Below, one piece after another: positions 895 to 13,091 of a stretch of 14,656 bases of DNA (positions are counted from its first letter, which is position 1; the number at the start of each line of letters is the position of its first letter). Source of the DNA: Physocladia obscura (Eukaryota > Chytridiomycota > Chytridiomycetes > Chytridiales > Chytriomycetaceae); contig JADGJH010000768.1 in NCBI GenBank assembly GCA_027596945.1, positions 1 to 14,656 of the forward strand, in the 5' to 3' direction. The position numbers were made by a program, and so were the translations under genes. The notes under the pieces were generated by a model. It saw only the letters and a list, made by a program, of their open reading frames with translations, ran no database searches and had not been told where the DNA came from.

Positions 895-3287
895 ATGCCA
901 GACGAATCAGCCGGTATTGCCTTCCCGAACAATGTGTCGTTCCAGCCGACAATTGACGAGACCAAGTTTGCGGAGACAGGCGACGAGGAGAAGAAAGTCG
1001 ATGTCGAGGGCGTCGATGCTGAGGACATTGCGGCGCTGGAGGCCGAGCGGCTGAACCACCTTGAGGACCAGGTCGATGACTTTGGCGTTGAGATGGTCAC
1101 CAAGATTGTATCACTCGAGGACGACTCTAGTTTGCCTGTCTTCACGTTTCGATACTTCCTGATTGCTTCCCTCCTCTCTGCCTTCTCCGGTACCCTCGGC
1201 CAGATCTACTACTTTAAGCCACAAGTTCTGACCATCTCTGTTTTCTTCCTCGTGCTCTTCTCTTATGTAAGAACTTCCTCCCATGTTAATCATAATTGAA
1301 TTCGACTGACTCTACTTGAATTCCACAGTTCGTTGGCAAGTTCCTCGAAAAGGTTCTGCCATCTGGCACCTTCCTCAACCCCAGCAAGTTCAACAAGAAG
1401 GAACATGCCCTTATCGTAATCACAGCAAACACTGCTGGAACCGCCGCGCTTGCAAACGAGCTCATTGCCTCCATGTACCTGTTCTACGACACTGTTATTC
1501 CCACCTGGACTGGAATACTTCTCGTCCTCTCTTCGCAGACTCTGGGTTATGGTTTCGCTGGCTTCTTCCGCGAAACTCTTGTCTATCCGCGTGCAACTTA
1601 TTACCCAAGCACATTGGCACAGGTCTCTGTGTATGAGAATCTACACAACGGTGACGGTATTTCTAAGAAGATGGCAAGATACTTTTTCATCGTGGCGGGT
1701 ATTTGTTTCTGCTATGAGTGGTTACCTCAGTACATTGCTCCGTCTCTCATCGGTTTTTCCATCATTTGTCTTGCAACCCAGCACCTTAAAAGTGATGTTG
1801 TTGCTAAGATTTTCGGTGGGGCATCGGCTAACGAAGGACTTGGTCTGTTTTCGATTTGCTTTGATTGGAACAACTTGACAGGTTACACTCCGATGTTGCT
1901 TCCATGGAGTACTATTCTGAACATGAGTCTCGGAGTTTTTGTTTGCTGCATCTTCCAGCCGTACTTGTGGTACTCTAACACTTTTGATGCTCAGTCTTAC
2001 CCGTGGATGGCACAAGGTATCTATGCAGTTGGAGGAGCCCCGTACAACCAAACTGCTGTGTTGGATTCCAATTATAACGTTAATTTGACTGCCGTTGAAG
2101 TTGTTGGTTTGCCCGGTTTGGCTGCATCTTATGCTCTCTTTCTGATTGGTGCTAATTTGGCACTCACTGCCGGTTTTGTCCACATTGGTCTCTACTTTGG
2201 TCCCGAAATTGTTGCCGGACTCAAGAACACATTTTCCAAGAAAGGAGAATCAACCAACGATGACCCATACTTCCTTATCATGGCAAAATACCCTGAAGCT
2301 CCATTGTGGTGGTACATCACTATTCTGGTCATCACCTTCGCTGTCGGTATGTTTGTGACGCAATACACCAACTCTGGCCTTGAATGGTACATGTTCATCG
2401 TTGCACTTCTTTTGGCGTTCATTTTTGTCTTCATCTCGGGTTTCATTTCTTCCACAACTGGATGGTTTGTCTCAAACGGTGTTTCCAACCTTGTGCAAAT
2501 GCTTGGAGGATTCTTGCGACCTGGAAACCCCGTCGCAAACATGTACTTCACCTTGTTTGGGTCAAACGCTGTCTCGCAGGCAACAAATATGCTTGCTGAC
2601 TTAAAAATGGGTCAATACATGAAAATTCCTCCTCGCGCAACTTTCTTTGCCCAACTCTATGGCTCGATCCTTGGTGCATTCTTCTCCTACTTTATCACTA
2701 TTTCTATTATCACCAACAACGCCGATGTGCTTAAAACAGTGATTGGAAGTACGCAATGGAACGGTGCCCAGGCCCAGTCGTACAATGGAAACGCCGTCAC
2801 ATGGGGAGGCTTCGCGAAGCAAATGTATGGGCCAGGTGGACCATACCAATGGGTGTTGTTCTCCTTCCTTCTCGGGTTCGTCTTGCCGCTGCCAGCTTAC
2901 TTTGCGCACCGCTTGTTCCCGAAAGTTGGATTCAATCTGCTTAACTTTGCTGTCCTGCCGTGGTTCTTCGGTTGCCTATGCACGGGAATTAACTCGTCCA
3001 TCTTCGGCACGCTTGTTATTGGTACTTTCACGCAGTTTTATTTGCGTAAGTACAGACCTGCGTTCTTCAACAAATATCAGTACATTACATCAGCGGCGTT
3101 GGATGCCGGTAACCAGTGGTGCGCGTTTCTGGTTACGTTGATTGTTGGTGGTGCGATTGCAACTCCAATTCCGTTCCCTTTCTGGACTTTGAATCCAAAT
3201 ATTGAGACTGGTATTTGGTACTGGGATGGTTGTTACAACCTAGGCAATGATGCGGCGTCCAACTTTACGCTTGGTGCTGGCTATTAG
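895..3287 (+). CDS. Oligopeptide transporter, OPT family (peptide-transporter clade)
   Basis: This is a polytopic proton-coupled oligopeptide importer of the OPT superfamily (Isp4/Opt1 type). It probably sits in the plasma membrane and takes up small peptides, possibly glutathione. Exons 895-1266 and 1329-3287 join in phase 0 to give 776 aa, a normal length for the family. Residues 1-80 form an acidic cytosolic tail; the first membrane segment starts near residue 86. Family signatures are visible: NPSKFNKKEH (about 141-150, the NPGPFN-KEH motif), KIPPRATF (about 556-563) and KYQYITSAALDAG (about 706-718). Many hydrophobic helices lie between them. The ATG at 895 is the first in frame and precedes the acidic tail. 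The gene converges with the chitin synthase. Substrate cannot be told from sequence. The family call is secure. Confidence 0.96.
1267..1328 (+). other. Intron 1 of the OPT gene
   Basis: The intron is 62 nt, with donor GTAAGA, a CTGAC branch-like motif at 1306-1310 and acceptor CACAG. It is phase 0. Reading through it introduces stops, while removing it joins the first membrane segments to the NPSKFNKKEH motif, so it is well supported. Confidence 0.92.
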
Positions 3288-3908: not shown

Positions 3909-6900
3909 TCAAACAAAACGAGTCCCAATGTCATGTGCACTACGTAGAGAATACTTGTTGAAAAATCTATCATGGTTAATGGAAGAAGGAGCAGTAGTAT
4001 TCCAAGAATCCCATCTACATAAAAAAAGTATTAATTTACGATCTTCTTAAAAAAAAGCAATAAAAATAAACACTCAACGATTTCAAAATCACGCTACTTG
4101 GATCAAATTTAATACTTTCGCATTCACCGTGCTCGTCATGATCGCGCCCCTTTGTTTCCCCATCGACCATCCGAGTCTGTCCCCATGAAAAATCATCAAA
4201 ATGCCAAAACGCATAAAGAGGAAGAACAAAATTCCACACTGGTAGCGCAAATATATAAACGCCGAGCCACCACAAATATGCAGCTTTATGTCGAGGGTTT
4301 GTCAGAACAACCAGGAAGCCAGGTAGTCCAAGGACAAAAACTAGAAGGAGCATAGGAATCATTTGGACTTGCGATGTAATTACAGTTTGGATAAGAAGAA
4401 ATATTGTAAATGATATAGCTGCTGGGAGAACGAGGGTTCCAATAAGTTCCACCTGTTTTTTAAAGTTATTTTCTGCGAAATGAAAAAAAAGAAAAAATTG
4501 CACCGGAGTTAACTTACAAAAACGACGAACTGCATACTGAAGCAAAATATCCCGCACAAATCTTGCACCAACAACAGCTCCATCAAATTATGTATTGTGG
4601 AATTAATCCACCGCCTTCGTTGGCTCAACAACACGCCAAACTCATCTGGCACAACGGTATGGCAAATTGCTTGCGGTACAAACATCATTTTGCGGCGAGG
4701 AAAATTTCGCAACATCAATGTGGACAAGAAACGGTCTTCGCCAAGAAGTAATAAATTTTTTTTGTGCAATGTTTCGACAACATTTTCAGAATACTCTTGT
4801 ACGATATCTGGATTCACAAGAAGTGGGACAAATCGACCAGTTAAATCTTTTTGAATTTTTATACGATACATACAGAAGCATCCTGTTATATATATTATAT
4901 ATATATATATATATGTTTTTGATAATTGAGTTTTTTCAAGTATAAATCTCCAAAATTTTACCTGGTAGGCAAGTGACTCCTCCAAAAATGCTTTCAAAAG
5001 CTTTTCCAAGATGGTGCGACGAAAAATACTCAAATACTTGGATGGCCGTGACCCAACTCGTCCATTTGTTTCGAATTCTTGTTTCGCCACACAGGCCCAT
5101 AATATTTCGATCGTTTATCATTACTTGAATCATAAATTTCAATGCGTCTGCATGGACATCGGTATCAGCATCAACCATGAGAACATATTCAAATTGCGAA
5201 GGATGTACTTTCATGAGATGCATAATACGGAATTGAATCTCGTAATCAAGACGCGTCATCCGGTCATCAAACAAGCAACGAGACAAACAGTTCATTAAGA
5301 TCAACTGAGAATCACGTTTTCCCTGTTGAAAATAAAATTATTTAAATTAAACGTACGAAACGAACTAATAATACGAAACTCGATTTCCCGGCTTTGCAGA
5401 ATCACGCTCTTCGGGTGCCCCACATTTGACAACAACAACAACAGGAACATCATGCCCTGAATGTACGTATCTTCCTGAATAAACGTATCCCATATTTCTT
5501 TGTTTTACGCCATCTGCAATTGCAACATACGCTGCTGGTTGTGGATACGGCAATCGTGTTTCAATCTCGATTAATCCCAATACAATATCCGGGGTGCTTT
5601 TTCGGTTTCCAGCGCCAGTTACTATTCCATCGGCGACGACAAAAAGTAGTTTTCGGTCATCAGGATATGTTGTCGCCGCGAGTGAATCCATTGTCGCACG
5701 GATGCTGGGTTCACTCTCACTGTAGCAGGTTACCAGCATTATTGTGTATGGATGCGGATGCGGATATGGTGAAACGTGATGTACATGATGACGTGTTGGT
5801 TTTGATTTTATGAGTCGCGGCGCGACAATCCAGTAAAAGTAAACTGCCATAAAAAATTTCGTAAAAACAAGAGCAAGAATAACGAGGAGTGATATGCTTT
5901 GAATGACTGTCGAAGTAATACATCCTGGCGGCGTAGAAGCTAAAAAACCAATTATTGCGCGTTCTTGAAGGCAGAAAGCAGGCGCCAGAAGGTTTGTAGA
6001 GTCGCTGTAAACTGGTAATGTAATATCAAGCCCAGCTGATCGTTGCAGGAGATTCGTAAATGGTAGGGTGATTGCGGGAATTTCAGTAATATTGAGAACA
6101 ACATTATTGAAAACCGTGATCTGTTTTCCTGAATGAGAAGAATAAGCTGAGATGTCAGCCCATGAAAATGTGACACGTTGGCGAGGAATAAATTCAAGCC
6201 AATCTACAGAGGCACAAAATTCTGAATTGCCAATTGCTATATTCTCCGGAGTTACGATATCAGCAATTGTTTTCAAGCAATCCCACGATGCTGACGAGTA
6301 AGGGAGGCAATGCGAAGATGGTGTAAAAAATAAGGACATTGAATTTCCAGTGAAATTTGCTACAGAAATAGTAATATCGGCTCTGGTTTGCAACACTTTT
6401 GTGACAAGTGACGAGTTGTACAGAAAGCCGTTGATCAAAATTTGTCCATCCATAGAATTTGAAGGGGAAAAATTTAAAGATGAGTCGTTAAAATATGGTG
6501 CTGTTTCTTCACTGAGTGCTGGGCAAAGCACATGTACTAGGCCAAATGTTAAGAAACCCACAATGAAACAAAGAAGGAAAATAACAAAACACAGAGCAAC
6601 CTGATATTGATGTCAAAAAAAAAAATTCAAAATCAAAATCAAAAATCAAAATTTCACAAACCTTTTCTCTCCATGCCTGTTGCGCAACAACGTTTTTTTT
6701 TCCGAGAATTTGTAGAAATCCATTTAAAACACAGCAAGTTAGTGCTTTCGAAAATAATGCCCATATGTTCAAAACTGATGCTTTCTGCTTCGGTTTTGGT
6801 TGCGGAACTTGTGGTATTTCAATGTACGAAGATTGTAAGATATAAGCATCTGAAAATCTAGTTGCTCCTGTACAGTCAAATCTTAAGAATTTACATTGCA

Positions 6901-7322
6901 GCTGAAACAAGGCGGGAAACATCGCAATTTGATGTACCTATTCTAGCAGCAGGTGGATCAGCGGATGGACTTCGTAGCATGGGTTTTGGCCGTCGTGCGA
7001 CAGTTGAAAGTCGATTGTTGTTTCTATTCAATGTATTTCGCATGGTTCCTGAATCAATTGCACCGAGCCTCTCTGCATACAAAGAATTCCTCATTACACT
7101 GTTACGGGATAACACAGAAAGCGCAGAAAAGCGTGTCGGGGAAGATCGAACTACGATATTTTGGTTTTGCGCTGGCCATTCGGTTGAATCTGATAATGGA
7201 TCTGTTCCAGAGCTTGAATTGCATGTCGTGCCAGAGGGATCCGACGACGCGTTGATGACATTAGTAACGAATGAAAGTGGTGAACGAAAACGCATCGGGA
7301 CATTGCTGGACATGGATGACAT
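3909..7322 (-). CDS. Chitin synthase, division 2, class IV-like (seven exons)
   Basis: This is a processive GT2 membrane enzyme that polymerises UDP-GlcNAc into cell-wall chitin. Predicted exons, in transcript order: 7322-6938, 6867-6662, 6600-5380, 5322-4962, 4882-4518, 4452-4079, 4014-3909. All phases agree and give 1005 aa. Residues 1-160 are Ser/Arg/Asn-rich and probably disordered. QAWREK (192-197) leads into a membrane helix (198-220), as in class IV enzymes. A luminal part with several N-glycosylation sequons follows, then a helix near 425-457. Catalytic motifs are VTCYSE (about 487-492), DADTD (655-659), EDR (773-775) and QRRRW (812-816), with three C-terminal helices (about 850-930). 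All catalytic signatures are present, so it looks functional. The least certain parts are the first intron's acceptor and the last intron's donor. Confidence 0.95.
4015..4078 (-). other. Chitin synthase intron 6 (weak donor)
   Basis: The intron is 64 nt, phase 2, with donor GTTGAG and acceptor TGTAG. It yields a 35-residue hydrophilic tail starting SWDSWNTT, comparable to the Lys-x-Trp-x-x-Trp tails of this family. The alternative donor GTGTTT at 4073 would instead give a hydrophobic tail. Reading through would end the protein at 4036. This is the least certain junction of the gene. Confidence 0.55.
4453..4517 (-). other. Chitin synthase intron 5
   Basis: The intron is 65 nt, phase 0, with the perfect donor GTAAGT. 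The acceptor AAACAG at 4453 restores [14 protein letters not shown]. The stronger-looking upstream acceptor TTTCGCAG would shift frame and is not used in this model. Confidence 0.88.
4883..4961 (-). other. Chitin synthase intron 4, containing a TA microsatellite
   Basis: The intron is 79 nt, phase 1, with donor GTAAAA and acceptor AACAG. It rebuilds the Gly of TCLPGCFCMYR. It is the longest intron of the gene because of a TA-repeat tract near its acceptor. Confidence 0.92.
4887..4914. repeat. TA dinucleotide microsatellite
   Basis: This is an almost pure TA tract of about 28 bases with one interruption, directly beside the intron 4 acceptor of the chitin synthase gene. Such tracts vary in length by slippage. 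Confidence 0.85.
5323..5379 (-). other. Chitin synthase intron 3
   Basis: The intron is 57 nt, phase 0, with donor GTTTCG and acceptor CAACAG. Removal restores the conserved string SAKPGNRGKRDSQ across the junction. Confidence 0.93.
6601..6661 (-). other. Chitin synthase intron 2
   Basis: The intron is 61 nt, phase 0, with donor GTTTGT, a TTGAC branch-like motif and acceptor ATCAG. Removal joins QAWREK to [10 protein letters not shown], a junction typical of class IV chitin synthases. Confidence 0.9.
6868..6937 (-). other. Chitin synthase intron 1 (two possible acceptors)
   Basis: Donor GTACAT follows the codon fragment at 6938. The acceptor TGTACAG ends at 6868 (70 nt), rebuilding a Gly codon. 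A second acceptor, TTTTCAG ending at 6850 (88 nt), also keeps frame and would remove six residues. This intron links a disordered 128-residue N-terminal exon to the conserved body. Without it the gene would start at the internal ATG at 6922, which also leaves a conserved C-terminal body. Confidence 0.65.
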
Positions 7323-7746
7323 GAATATCTGACGCGTTTTGTTTTGTTTGTTCAAATTGGTTTTTGGACGGGAAGGGCAATGTAAATTTTACGAAGTGGG
7401 CAACTATAGAAAGAAACTATCTAGAATTGAAAACTTATTTGGCGCAGTTTTGGCCGAATCTTGGACAAACTTTCTCAGTGGTTTGCTTTTTTCATGCAAA
7501 TATCATTTTTTGCTTCACACTCAAAATACACCACAGACTACAGACGACGATTTCTCTTGTATCGGAAATAAGAAAAGATAAATGTTTTTGCCTGTTGTTG
7601 TTTTTGTTCCTTCGAATTATATTCTGAAAATTAGAAACAATTCGATATTACAGTAAATTGTTCAATTACTCACTTTCTCAGAATTCTTTGGAGATTATCT
7701 TTTCCCGTGTTGATTGACCATAATAAATTAGTTCAAATATTGTACA
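7323..7746. other. Divergent intergenic region, chitin synthase promoter side
   Basis: About 420 bases lie between the chitin synthase start (-) and the ATG of the orphan fragment (+). Short open frames here are AT-rich with no domain. Its size and position suit a shared divergent promoter, but no strong core elements are visible beyond those listed. Confidence 0.45.
7332..7360 (-). promoter_or_regulatory. ACGCGT box and CCAAT box before the chitin synthase start
   Basis: ACGCGT (7332-7337) has the sequence of the yeast MCB element bound by the G1/S factor MBF. It lies 9 bases before the predicted ATG, probably inside the 5' UTR. A CCAAT pentamer on the minus strand lies at 7360-7356. Another ACGCGT occurs inside the coding region, so the regulatory reading is weak. 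Confidence 0.2.
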
Positions 7747-8081: not shown

Positions 8082-8793
8082 AACTTACCATTTTTCAAAA
8101 TCACCTCAGTAAGGCCACCAGAATTCAATGGCAACACTAGAACTAAGCCAGCACAAAACTCAAAACATCATCGATGATTACTTACTTAGATGCAAAGAAC
8201 AAGCCCAACTATATGGATTTCTTGCTGACAGTGCCAAGCCAACTCAGCCGCACTGTGCAGCCTCAATTACTACAGGACTCACAGAACATGCTCGTACATG
8301 CTGGAGACATCTACCAGAAGACCAGCATGGGAACATGACTTGGAAAAATTATCAAACCTGGATTTGTTCAAATTTTGGATCCCAATTAACCCTAACACAA
8401 GCCATTGAAGGCATGGATTCTCTTAAACAGACAAGATCTGCAACATTATATTCACAGGAATTTAACAATCTCTTATCTGCAATCTGCTCCAGAAGTATTA
8501 ATCTTGAAGACAGATACCTTTGCGTTAAGTACCTTCAGGGTCTTAAGCTGCACCTTTGCAACATGCATGAATTATTTAACATCAAAGATGATCTAAACAA
8601 ACTTCAAATGGAAGCCTGATGCCTAGACAATTTTTATTGATGAAAAACAAAAGGGAGGCCTACTCCACAGCAAAACGGCACAAAACAAAATTTTCCCTCA
8701 CAAAAATTTCCAACCCCAAATTTTCACAATTACCACAACAACGAACCACAACTAATGGATCTGGGATTAGAAATTGTACATCAAGATAGGTAA
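8082..8793 (+). pseudogene. Degenerate Ty3-type retrotransposon gag
   Basis: This is a capsid-type Gag of the Retrotrans_gag family. The N-terminal motif RPPEFNGNTRTKPA is read in one frame (8112 on). A frameshift near 8150-8165 moves to the frame of NIIDDYLLRCKEQAQLYGF, and the capsid core (TWKNYQTWICSNFG, TLYSQEFNNLLSAI, LQGLKLHL) follows. In-frame stops at 8617, 8638 and 8641 break it, but the same frame then continues through an Asn/Pro/Gln-rich linker and MDLGLEI to a stop at 8791. There is no zinc knuckle, protease, reverse transcriptase or integrase, and no LTR was identified. The longest intact piece is 8128-8619 (163 codons). It is a dead fragment of an old insertion. Confidence 0.82.
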
Positions 8794-11019: not shown

Positions 11020-13091
11020 ATGCAGGCACATTTGATCGAGCGAGCAAAAAACTTATCCACCGGTCTTTTAGAAACAATGACCACTTTTGGATCACTTTCG
11101 TCTGCACGATTGCCCCAAACTTCAGCAGAGCCGCCTATAGCAATCCCAGTTATCTCACACACACTACTCCAAATTGATGCAACTGAAAAGCTTGGATCTG
11201 GCGGATTTGGCCAAGTGGTTGGCGGAATGTATGGCCAGAACCGAGTTGCCATCAAAACGCTTCTGGAAGGCTCACTCAATGGGCTGCAGAAGAAGGAGAT
11301 TCTGCGCGAGGGAACAATCTGGCACAATCTCAAGCACCCAAACATTGTAACCTTGTGGGGTATTTCGTATGGTGCAGATGGTGCATCAAACCCATGTCTT
11401 GTCATGGAGAGAATGGCCACCAGTTTGGATAATTATATCTACAGTGATGATCCACCACTATTCAAAAACCGGGTTCAATTTTGCGCTCAAATAACCGCTG
11501 CCCTAGCTTACATGCACAGCCTAACACCACCAGTCATTCATGCTGATCTCAAACCCAACAATATTCTCATTGGTATTTATTTCTGCACTTAGTCTTTTAA
11601 TTATCTGTTGTTTGTTAAAATTAACACTTTTATTAGATGCAACTGGACAGGCAAAAATAACTGATTTTGGCCTTGCACGCCTGCAGAATCTCACTCGCGC
11701 TTATGGAAGTATCATGAGAGATGTTCCACAAAAACATGGTGCTATACTTTTTGCTCCTCCTGAAGCTTTTGCACGCCAATACATTGCCACCATTGCTCAT
11801 GACACATACTGCTTTGCAATGACAATGTTTGAAATTTTGTTCCGTGAGCCACCATTTTTCCATGAGAATCCAGAAGCAATCAAGGATTGGGTCATTGCTG
11901 GGGAACGACCATACAGACCAACAACATCTGATGCTGAAGAAGTTCCTGATGCATGCTGGGAATTGATAAATGAATGCTGGAACCAAGATCCAAAAGTCCG
12001 GCCCAGAATGGATGATGTTTTCCAGAGGATTTCTGTTTTGTTAGAATCTCTACCAACAATTCAGGTGACTCAAAAAACCCCTTTTTTATTTTTATTTTCC
12101 AATGTAACCAAATCAGCAAATATTGACCTACCCATAACCACAGCCAAACCCACAGCAATTTAACCCATTGAGCAAAATTTTAAATCAGCATTTCAAAAAA
12201 CCTTTTTTTGGGTTGCCACAAAGGACACTTAAGGACCATAGTGAAAGAGTAACTGCAGTTGCCATCAGTACAGATGGGCAGTTTGTTGTGTCTGGATCTG
12301 TTGATGAGACTGTGAAAATCTGGGATGCACAAACTGGTGCACTGCAAAGAACACTTAAGGGCCACAATGATCAGGTGCACGCAGCTGCCATCAGCACAGA
12401 TGGGCAGTTTATTGTGTCTGGATCTGTAGACAAGACTGTAAAAATCTGGGATGCACACAGTGGTGCACTGCAAAGAGCACTTGAGGGCCACAGTTCTGGG
12501 GTGCATGCAGTTGCCATTAGCATAGATGGGCAGTTTGTTGTATCTGGATCTTCAGACAATACTGTGAAAATCTGGGATACACAGACTGGCACACTACAAC
12601 AAACACTTGAGGGCCACTGGGATTGGGTGACTGCAGTTGCCATTAGCATAAATGGGCAGTTTGTTGTGTCTGGATCTGGGGACAAGACTGTGAAAATGTG
12701 GGATATACAGACTGGTGCACTGCAAAGAACACTTATGGGCCACAGGAATTTGGTGCATGCAGTTTCTATAAGCAGAGATGGGCAGTTTGTTGTATCTGGA
12801 TCATGGGACAAGACTGTGAAAATCTGGGATGCACAGACAGGTATACTGCAAAGAATTTTTGAGGGCCACAGTAGGGAAGTGAATGCAGTTGCCATCAGTG
12901 CAGATGGGCAGTTTGTTGTGTCTGGATCAATAGACAATACTGTAAAAATCTGGGAGGCACAAACTGGCACACTACAAAGAACCTTTGAGGGCCACAGCAG
13001 ATTAGTGAGTGCAGTTGCAATCAGCACAGATGGGCAGTTTGTTGTTTCTGGATCTTGGGACACAACTGTGATTATTTGGGCCAGAGAATAA
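11020..13091 (+). CDS. TKL-type protein kinase fused to seven high-identity WD40 repeats
   Basis: This is a predicted intracellular signalling receptor or kinase. Exons 11020-11572, 11637-12064 and 12144-13091 join in frame to give 642 aa. Kinase signatures: GSGGFG (59-64), VAIK with Lys79, a likely helix-C Glu97, HADLKPNN (174-181), DFG (194-196), APPE (224-227), Asp240 in the F helix, and CWNQDPKVRPR ending at Arg306/Arg308. These indicate an active TKL-type kinase, with HAD instead of HRD (non-RD). A short linker (328-353) leads to seven WD40 repeats of 42 residues (354-642), enough for one closed propeller. The repeats are nearly identical except at a few binding-face positions. ATG 11020 is the first in frame after a stop at 10936. 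No membrane segment is seen. The partner is unknown. Confidence 0.92.
11573..11636 (+). other. Intron 1 of the kinase-WD40 gene
   Basis: The intron is 64 nt, phase 1, with donor GTATTT, a TTAAC branch-like motif and acceptor TATTAG. Removal rebuilds NNILIDATGQAKITDFG, the normal spacing between the catalytic loop and DFG. Confidence 0.93.
12065..12143 (+). other. Intron 2 of the kinase-WD40 gene (three in-frame acceptors)
   Basis: Donor GTGACT follows the last kinase helix. The acceptor ACCACAG ends at 12143. Two later acceptors, ending at 12155 and 12188, are also phase 0 and would shorten the linker by 4 or 15 residues without touching the domains. All three fuse kinase and propeller. Without splicing the kinase would end at the TAA at 12161, leaving the WD40 frame separate. 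Confidence 0.75.
12222..13088 (+). repeat. Seven tandem 126-bp WD40 repeat units
   Basis: The units start at 12222, 12348, 12474, 12600, 12726, 12852 and 12978. The first six are exactly 126 bp; the last is 111 bp and ends at the stop. The core gatgggcagtttgttgt recurs with few changes. In protein terms the frame DGQFVVSGS-D-TVKIWD is constant. Differences cluster at unit positions 7, 8, 9, 11, 17, 27 and 29. Confidence 0.97.

What the first reader, a model, noticed from the sequence alone, without database searches (positions are those of the whole stretch)
12222..13088. WD40 repeats with HET-E-like hypervariable binding-face positions
Aligning the seven 42-residue units by eye shows a nearly fixed framework. 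Variation is concentrated at unit position 7 (S,N,S,W,R,S,S), 8 (E,D,S,D,N,R,R), 9 (R,Q,G,W,L,E,L), 11 (T,H,H,T,H,N,S), 27 (V,V,S,G,W,I,W) and 29 (E,K,N,K,K,N,T). Position 17 (T,T,I,I,R,A,T) also varies, which I would not have expected from that set. With an offset of three, these are the positions I recall as positively selected in HET-E/HET-D/HET-R repeats of Podospora (10, 11, 12, 14, 30, 32, 39). That pattern arises from repeat shuffling plus diversifying selection in non-self recognition. Here it sits on a kinase rather than a NACHT protein.
Basis: partly seen in the sequence, partly recalled or inferred. Interest (0 to 1): 0.88.

Follow-up and report, generated by a model that had tools for sequence, protein, structure and literature searches.

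The report
Kinase sharing WD40 repeats with NLRs
In the chytrid fungus Physocladia obscura, a predicted protein kinase gene carries seven closely similar WD40 repeats whose framework cannot be told apart from that of repeats in some NLR-type (NACHT-WD40-like) genes of the same species, so the kinase likely uses an exchangeable sensor to detect its target.

Summary
Seven 42-aa WD40 units (12228-13088) have a near-fixed framework. The seven positions published for Podospora het-d/het-e are among the ten most variable, six of them in the top seven; position 15 is the extra one.

The pattern is not diagnostic: the same positions are enriched in 219 of 228 WD40 arrays of search-hit proteins, bacterial ones included.

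Against framework dS, omega at the published codons is 3.1-9.8 in the window, and 0 of 100 null simulations reach the observed LRT in each of four settings. Given their own synonymous rate, beta/alpha there is about 1: fast turnover, but dN>dS is not shown.

The new point is the setting. The array sits on a kinase, and its framework is indistinguishable from repeats of a partial NLR-type protein of the same species (P0121) and, in DNA, of NLR-side fragments. It is farther from intact NACHT-WD40 arrays (C146 0.69, C916 0.61) and from Siphonaria kinase-WD40 repeats (0.63). Contig C348 joins the kinase 5' half directly to an NLR-type linker and repeats.

Best reading: a predicted receptor-like kinase fed from an NLR repeat pool. 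Target, activity and isolate variation are untested.

The parts
11020..11572 (+). predicted exon 1: N-terminus and kinase N-lobe to the catalytic loop (GSGGFGQV, VAIK, HADLKPNN)
   Evidence: ORF and Pfam Pkinase / PK_Tyr_Ser-Thr; GT donor after 11572; 79% protein identity to C348
11573..11636 (+). predicted intron 1
   Evidence: GT...AG; joins the two kinase halves in frame
11637..12064 (+). predicted exon 2: kinase C-lobe (DFG, APPE)
   Evidence: Pfam kinase match; 59% to own-genome C432, 73% to the C460 tail
12065..12143 (+). predicted intron 2 (an acceptor at 12188 is also possible)
   Evidence: exon start 12144 keeps the frame and gives 642 aa with a PQQFNP linker like that in C460; exon start 12189 gives 627 aa
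12144..13091 (+). predicted exon 3: linker plus the WD40 domain, ends TAA
12228..13088 (+). seven 42-aa WD40 units (the last truncated); the most variable codons are unit positions 5,6,7,9,25,27 and 15, with 34 of the published set less so
   Evidence: tandem repeat period 126 at 12254-13055; predicted single 7-bladed propeller, pLDDT 94.6, pTM 0.91, best PDB fold matches 7-bladed 7big and PkwA 5yzv

Best explanation
The window encodes a predicted three-exon protein kinase ending in seven WD40 repeats whose framework cannot be told apart from repeats of some NLR-type (NACHT-WD40-like) genes of the same species, and it likely works as an intracellular receptor kinase in which the variable top face of the propeller would bind a target and switch the kinase on. 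Shown: the sequence, the position pattern, the matching repeat framework, and a kinase-to-NLR-type junction in a paralogous contig (C348). Predicted: splicing, the 7-bladed propeller and kinase activity (K, HAD and DFG motifs present by eye). Inferred: repeats pass between kinase and NLR loci by unequal recombination or gene conversion, which homogenises the framework while the binding-face codons turn over several times faster; the ligand and the kinase output are unknown.
For: Kinase plus WD40 in one predicted gene. Own-genome NACHT hits on seven contigs, with NACHT and WD40 in one open frame in C146 and C916. Protein framework identity (published positions left out, Siphonaria units corrected): window-window 0.82, window-P0121 0.81, P0121-P0121 0.79, window-Siphonaria kinases 0.63; within minus between is -0.007 (p=0.84) against P0121 and 0.155 (0 of 1000 permutations) against Siphonaria P0139. 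P0121 is a partial P. obscura protein that lacks the NACHT core but aligns with C146 and C916 downstream of it. DNA framework identity: kinase-type units 0.876 among themselves, 0.887 to five NLR-side units (p=0.71); for 8 of 9 kinase-type units the best match, or joint best in one case, is an NLR-side unit. C348: an 81% match to window exon 1 ends where 65-82% matches to NLR-type linker and WD40 DNA begin, within about 40 bases. Two Siphonaria sp. JEL0065 proteins have the same architecture and enrichment at the same positions. Turnover at the published codons is raised 3-10 fold over framework dS in the window and the close-repeat sets. Positions 5-7, 25 and 27 lie in d-a and b-c loops, 9 at the start of strand a.
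Against: The variable-face pattern is found in 219 of 228 WD40 arrays, so it does not by itself point to a receptor. Site-specific dN/dS is about 1. The single-ORF NLR arrays C146 and C916 show omega 0.5-1.2 at the same codons, not above 1 with support. Window framework identity is only 0.69 to C146 and 0.61 to C916, the latter no nearer than Siphonaria (0.63); the close match is to P0121 (partial, apparently not in the held assembly) and to fragments C348, C589 and C198. C348 and C460 look rearranged and may be pseudogenes or misassemblies. One genome only; no isolate, expression or ligand data.
Confidence: 0.48

Rival explanations
1. Ordinary repetitive WD40 kinase: the array arose by recent internal duplication and serves as a fixed scaffold or docking domain; surface positions vary because only they are free of structural constraint.
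For: The same positions are the variable ones in 219 of 228 arrays. Site-specific dN/dS is about 1. Kinase-WD40 fusions are reported as frequent in Cyanobacteria and Planctomycetes (PMC5587647 passages) and PkwA's WD40 domain is a near fold match.
Against: Free positions should run at the framework's synonymous rate; instead the window's published codons run higher for synonymous change too (LRT(alpha=1) 4.3-6.4), while synonymous change at neighbouring codons is hardly raised (34 of 146 against 81 of 408 same-residue pairs). It does not explain why the framework matches P0121 and NLR-side fragments and not Siphonaria kinase repeats.
Confidence: 0.3
2. One-time capture: a Sel1-type kinase lost its repeats and took a WD40 block from an NLR gene once, recently; there is no continuing exchange.
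For: Outside C348, six of the seven best database kinases carry Sel1 repeats; the framework is still 81% like P0121.
Against: Best matches show no collinear order with P0121 units, by eye; three kinase-linked loci (window, C348, C460) have different rearrangements; variable pairs such as EN (7,9) or WK (25,27) occur in both classes in different combinations (few, not tested against chance).
Confidence: 0.25
3. It is a HET-E-like allorecognition gene that controls fusion incompatibility between strains.
For: Same WD40 unit length and variable positions as het-d/het-e.
Against: No NACHT or HET match among the families shown for this gene and no NACHT hit on this contig; the pattern is not specific; no strain data; heterokaryon fusion is not an established feature of chytrids (recalled).
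Confidence: 0.08
4. Codon-precise hypermutation: a directed process diversifies the face codons, raising synonymous and non-synonymous change alike.
For: For the four strongest codons the equal-rates model fits as well as the free model (2dlnL 0.07) and better than pure selection by 6.3; 43 of 100 equal-rates simulations but 1 of 100 selection simulations are as extreme (by the other statistic 46 and 3 of 100).
Against: It rests on four synonymous pairs (codons 7, 9 and 25); codon-by-codon precision with quiet neighbours is hard for any mutator I know of, and no such machinery was looked for.
Confidence: 0.07

Closest known systems
Podospora anserina HNWD/NWD genes (het-d, het-e, het-r)
   Same: 42-aa WD40 units, the same variable positions (7,9,25,27 and 5,6,34), repeats alike across loci
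   Different: kinase instead of HET-NACHT; 71% mean unit identity; one 7-bladed propeller rather than about 11 repeats; dN>dS not established; no allele or cell-death data
Physocladia NLR-type genes (P0121/HK100_004146 partial; NACHT-WD40 ORFs C146, C916)
   Same: WD40 framework (P0121 81% to the window; C146 69%, C916 61%)
   Different: NACHT-type domain (NPHP3_N shown for C916; P0121 is cut before it) and a different linker; no kinase
Siphonaria sp. JEL0065 kinase-WD40 proteins (P0139, P0145)
   Same: kinase plus seven WD40 repeats, enrichment at the same variable positions
   Different: repeat framework 63% like the window; kinase 39-40% identical and not its nearest by path in the kinase tree (unresolved)
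Chytrid kinases with Sel1 repeats (P0002, P0003, P0001)
   Same: closest kinase domains outside C348 (42-52%)
   Different: Sel1 instead of WD40 repeats
Bacterial WD40 kinases (PkwA type; highly repetitive WD40 class of Hu et al. 2017)
   Same: kinase plus repetitive WD40; variable hotspot sites
   Different: window kinase has chytrid nearest relatives; sharing with NLR loci was not examined in bacteria

Membership tests
HNWD/NWD (HET-E type NLR) | NACHT domain in the same protein | tested here: not met
   the two kinase exons match only kinase families; the WD40 exon has 57 matches of which the 25 shown are all WD40-type; none of the seven own-genome NACHT hits lies on the window contig
HNWD/NWD (HET-E type NLR) | HET effector domain (HNWD subset) | tested here: not met
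   no HET match among the families shown for the three exons (32 of 57 WD40-exon matches not shown); not searched in the wider genome
HNWD/NWD (HET-E type NLR) | 42-aa WD40 units variable at 7, 9, 25, 27 | tested here: met
   but generic, 219 of 228 arrays
HNWD/NWD (HET-E type NLR) | positive selection (dN>dS) at those codons | tested here: inconclusive
   omega 3.1-9.8 against framework dS, about 1 against their own dS
HNWD/NWD (HET-E type NLR) | repeat exchange between loci | tested here: inconclusive
   framework indistinguishable between kinase-type and NLR-side units and a C348 junction; exchange itself not observed
HNWD/NWD (HET-E type NLR) | repeat-number polymorphism among isolates; incompatibility function | not testable with these tools
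   one assembly only
High internal conservation (Dyrka 2014: 85% over 100 aa) | 85% internal identity | tested here: not met
   mean unit identity 0.71; threshold from PMC4986451 passages
Highly repetitive WD40 (Hu 2017) | internal identity at least 0.7 | tested here: met
   0.71, marginal, by my own mean pairwise measure; threshold from PMC5587647 passages
Kinase-WD40 proteins (PkwA type) | kinase and WD40 propeller in one protein | tested here: met
   splicing predicted
Kinase-WD40 proteins (PkwA type) | bacterial PkwA-like kinase lineage | tested here: not met
   the seven best kinase hits are chytrid proteins (list of 120 of 6266); no PkwA row in the kinase tree

The most novel reading that the evidence does not exclude
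In chytrids a single genomic pool of WD40 cassettes arms two receptor classes, NLRs and kinases: repeats move between them by recombination, and the binding-face codons turn over as a codon-precise hypervariable set while everything around them is homogenised.
Probability: 0.33. Interest if true: 0.78.

Novelty: new variant of a known kind. Interest (0 to 1): 0.5.

Why it matters
Repeat sharing and diversification of fungal WD40 sensors have been described inside NLR families. A kinase drawing on the same repeats would mean that the sensor, not the NLR, is the unit that evolves, and that a receptor-kinase branch of this system exists in early-diverging fungi, where few NLRs are reported. Eight paper searches listed no title or abstract opening that describes this; they cover open-licence papers only, and nine of the listed papers were looked into, by passages. 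It also gives a caution: the HET-E-like position pattern alone is not evidence of non-self recognition.

Tried and rejected
(first codon fit) did not converge (negative LRTs) and is superseded. One search used a non-WD40 linker piece as the first unit of each Siphonaria array, which made the window-Siphonaria identity too low (0.55-0.57); searches use seven true units each and give 0.63. Per-site FEL found no published position with beta>alpha at p<0.1 in the window (only position 15, p 0.076); in the 13-unit pool position 34 (p 0.038) and 15 (p 0.087). The third protein search (Siphonaria WD40 region) was flooded by long cyanobacterial and other arrays, and no Siphonaria NLR was named among the 120 listed, so sharing in Siphonaria is untested. 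The kinase tree (14 rows) left the window kinase unresolved; shared or separate origin of the Physocladia and Siphonaria fusions is open. A regional mutation hotspot is not supported (neighbouring codons nearly quiet). The species-name paper search found one paper, on ataxin-2, not read. The control draws on hits of my own WD40 searches (best 120 of each) with units registered by a profile of the window's repeats, so it is not a random sample, and it includes P0121 and may include the two Siphonaria proteins. Units with gaps, edges or N were dropped (listed); C863 and the second C589 unit were also left out of the 13-unit pool, and the second C589 unit was used only in part.

Full report
WHAT IS THERE. 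The + strand 11020-13091 carries a predicted three-exon gene: exon 1 11020-11572, exon 2 11637-12064, exon 3 12144-13091, giving 642 aa (an alternative exon 3 start at 12189 gives 627 aa). Exons 1 and 2 match Pkinase and PK_Tyr_Ser-Thr; exon 3 matches WD40 with seven stretches. The kinase keeps VAIK, HADLKPNN and DFG by eye. The held assembly seems to lack some contigs: HK100_004146 (P0121, on a 7081-base contig) has a longest own-genome match of 59% (C146) and shorter pieces up to 80%.

THE OBSERVATION. Seven units with mean identity 0.71. In LxGH numbering the most variable positions are 7, 6, 25, 9, 27, 15, 5, 38, 2, and 34 tied with 42. The published Podospora positions are 5, 6, 7, 9, 25, 27, 34 in this frame (PMC12222747 passage; 7, 9, 25, 27 strongest, PMC1805685 passages). 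In the predicted structure (AlphaFold2, three sequences, pLDDT 94.6, pTM 0.91) positions 5-7 lie in the d-a loop, 25 and 27 in the b-c loop and 9 at the start of strand a, the loops reported as the interaction platform (PMC1805685); 15 and 34 lie in the a-b and c-d loops. Best PDB fold matches are a designed 7-bladed propeller (7big) and the WD40 domain of bacterial PkwA (5yzv).

HOW SPECIAL IS THE PATTERN. I applied the same test to the 233 WD40-rich proteins listed by two of my searches: 228 had at least six gap-free units, and in 219 of those the seven positions were enriched for entropy (p<0.01). Overlap of the top seven with the published seven averages 5.07 in the 29 arrays with identity 0.7 or more; the window has 6. 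These include bacterial and cyanobacterial proteins. The sample is not random: it is made of relatives of these arrays, registered with a profile of the window's units. Hu et al. 2017 report the same tendency for highly repetitive WD40 proteins (PMC5587647 passages). So the pattern looks like the general signature of repetitive propellers and cannot by itself indicate non-self recognition.

SELECTION. With a codon model in which the synonymous rate is shared, omega at the published positions is 3.1-9.8 in the window (framework 0.26-0.48), LRT against 1 p 8e-5 to 4e-7 over three tree choices and two position sets; the 11 kinase-linked units and 13 close units give 3.2-9.9. Null simulations of the seven window units, with and without recombination between the halves, reached the observed LRT in 0 of 100 in each of four settings. 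With a separate synonymous rate at those codons beta/alpha is 0.60-1.84 over 18 fits, smallest p 0.09. For the four strongest codons, simulations under pure selection were as extreme as the data in 1 of 100, under equal rates in 43 of 100. Synonymous change at adjacent codons is hardly raised (34 of 146 same-residue pairs against 81 of 408). I conclude that these codons turn over several times faster than the framework's silent sites, and that dN>dS is not shown; with seven units the codons are near saturation. The longer NLR arrays C146 (12 units) and C916 (10) give omega 0.5-1.2 there, without support above 1.

RELATIVES IN THE GENOME. NACHT hits lie on seven contigs; C146, C916, C503 and C419 also have WD40 hits, and in C146 and C916 both are in one open frame (NPHP3_N shown for C916). 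DNA of the window array matches eight other contigs: C146, C348, C589, C460, C863, C916, C27 and C198. C460 has the kinase tail followed by WD40 units and then a run of N. C348 matches window exon 1 at 81% up to about the catalytic aspartate codon and then NLR-type linker DNA of C863, C198 and C589 at 75-82% (C146 72%, C916 65%): a kinase-NLR recombinant or a misassembly.

SHARED REPEATS. Framework identity (published positions left out): window-window 0.82, window-P0121 0.81, P0121-P0121 0.79, window-C348 0.83, window-C460 0.84, window-C146 0.69, window-C916 0.61, window-Siphonaria kinases 0.63. P0121 is partial: it begins downstream of the NACHT core and is called NLR-type because it aligns with C146 and C916. 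Label permutation (position 15 also left out): window versus P0121 -0.007 (p 0.84); versus C146 -0.018 (p 0.84; C146 is itself diverse, 0.62); versus C916 0.004 (p 0.34; 0.52); versus Siphonaria P0139 0.155 (0 of 1000). DNA: nine kinase-type units (window, C460) 0.876 among themselves, 0.887 to five NLR-side units (C348, C589, C198; 0.893 among themselves), p 0.71. Four-residue combinations at 7, 9, 25, 27 are distinct in 7 of 7 window units and 11 of 11 kinase-linked units, 30 of 33 NLR units; none is shared whole; two of ten (7,9) pairs and three of nine (25,27) pairs are shared, not tested against chance.

OUTSIDE THE GENOME. The seven best kinase hits are chytrid proteins, six with Sel1 repeats and one with a LIM domain. 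Two Siphonaria sp. JEL0065 proteins have kinase plus seven WD40 repeats with enrichment at the same positions (p 0.0002 and 0.0003), though position 27 is little variable there. The kinase tree does not settle whether the fusions are one event.

MECHANISM. I think most likely that this is an intracellular receptor-like kinase whose sensor is supplied from an NLR WD40 pool. The matching framework is shown; exchange, ligand binding and kinase switching are inferred. Literature: fungal NLR repeats are known to be shared and diversified (PMC1805685, PMC2873952); PKinase is listed among NLR N-terminal domains (PMC4986451) and was found in 12 Sordariales NLRs, nine of them C-terminal (PMC12258605); proteases fused directly to WD40/TPR/ANK repeats are described (PMC12881547); NLRs were not found in chytrids in PMC4986451 and start from one per species in Chytridiomycota in PMC12258605. 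PMC9815663 and PMC10197012 were also looked into. All papers were seen as passages only.

Noticed in passing
8128-8616 (+): Retrotransposon gag fragment (PF03732, E 1.9e-9) between the chitin synthase and the kinase gene.
   Followed up: no
4036-6561 (-) and C348 (L037 about 5671-7366, -): Chitin synthase 2-type gene in pieces; a 62% identical (DNA) chitin synthase also lies beside the kinase-NLR chimera on C348, in a different relative orientation.
   Followed up: partly
1473-3284 (+): OPT oligopeptide transporter ORF (E 1.4e-112).
   Followed up: no
L039:1-2219 (C460): A run of N begins inside the third WD40 unit; it may be an assembly gap at the repeats or a withheld stretch.
   Followed up: no
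own genome C752, C870, C503, C419, C581: Five further NACHT-hit contigs besides C146 and C916; C503 and C419 also have WD40 hits.
   Followed up: partly
window kinase, catalytic loop (HAD in place of HRD): The kinase is of the non-RD type, a feature recalled as frequent among plant immune receptor kinases; P0001 to P0006 also have HAD, P0007 has HRD and the Siphonaria WD40 kinases HKD.
   Followed up: no
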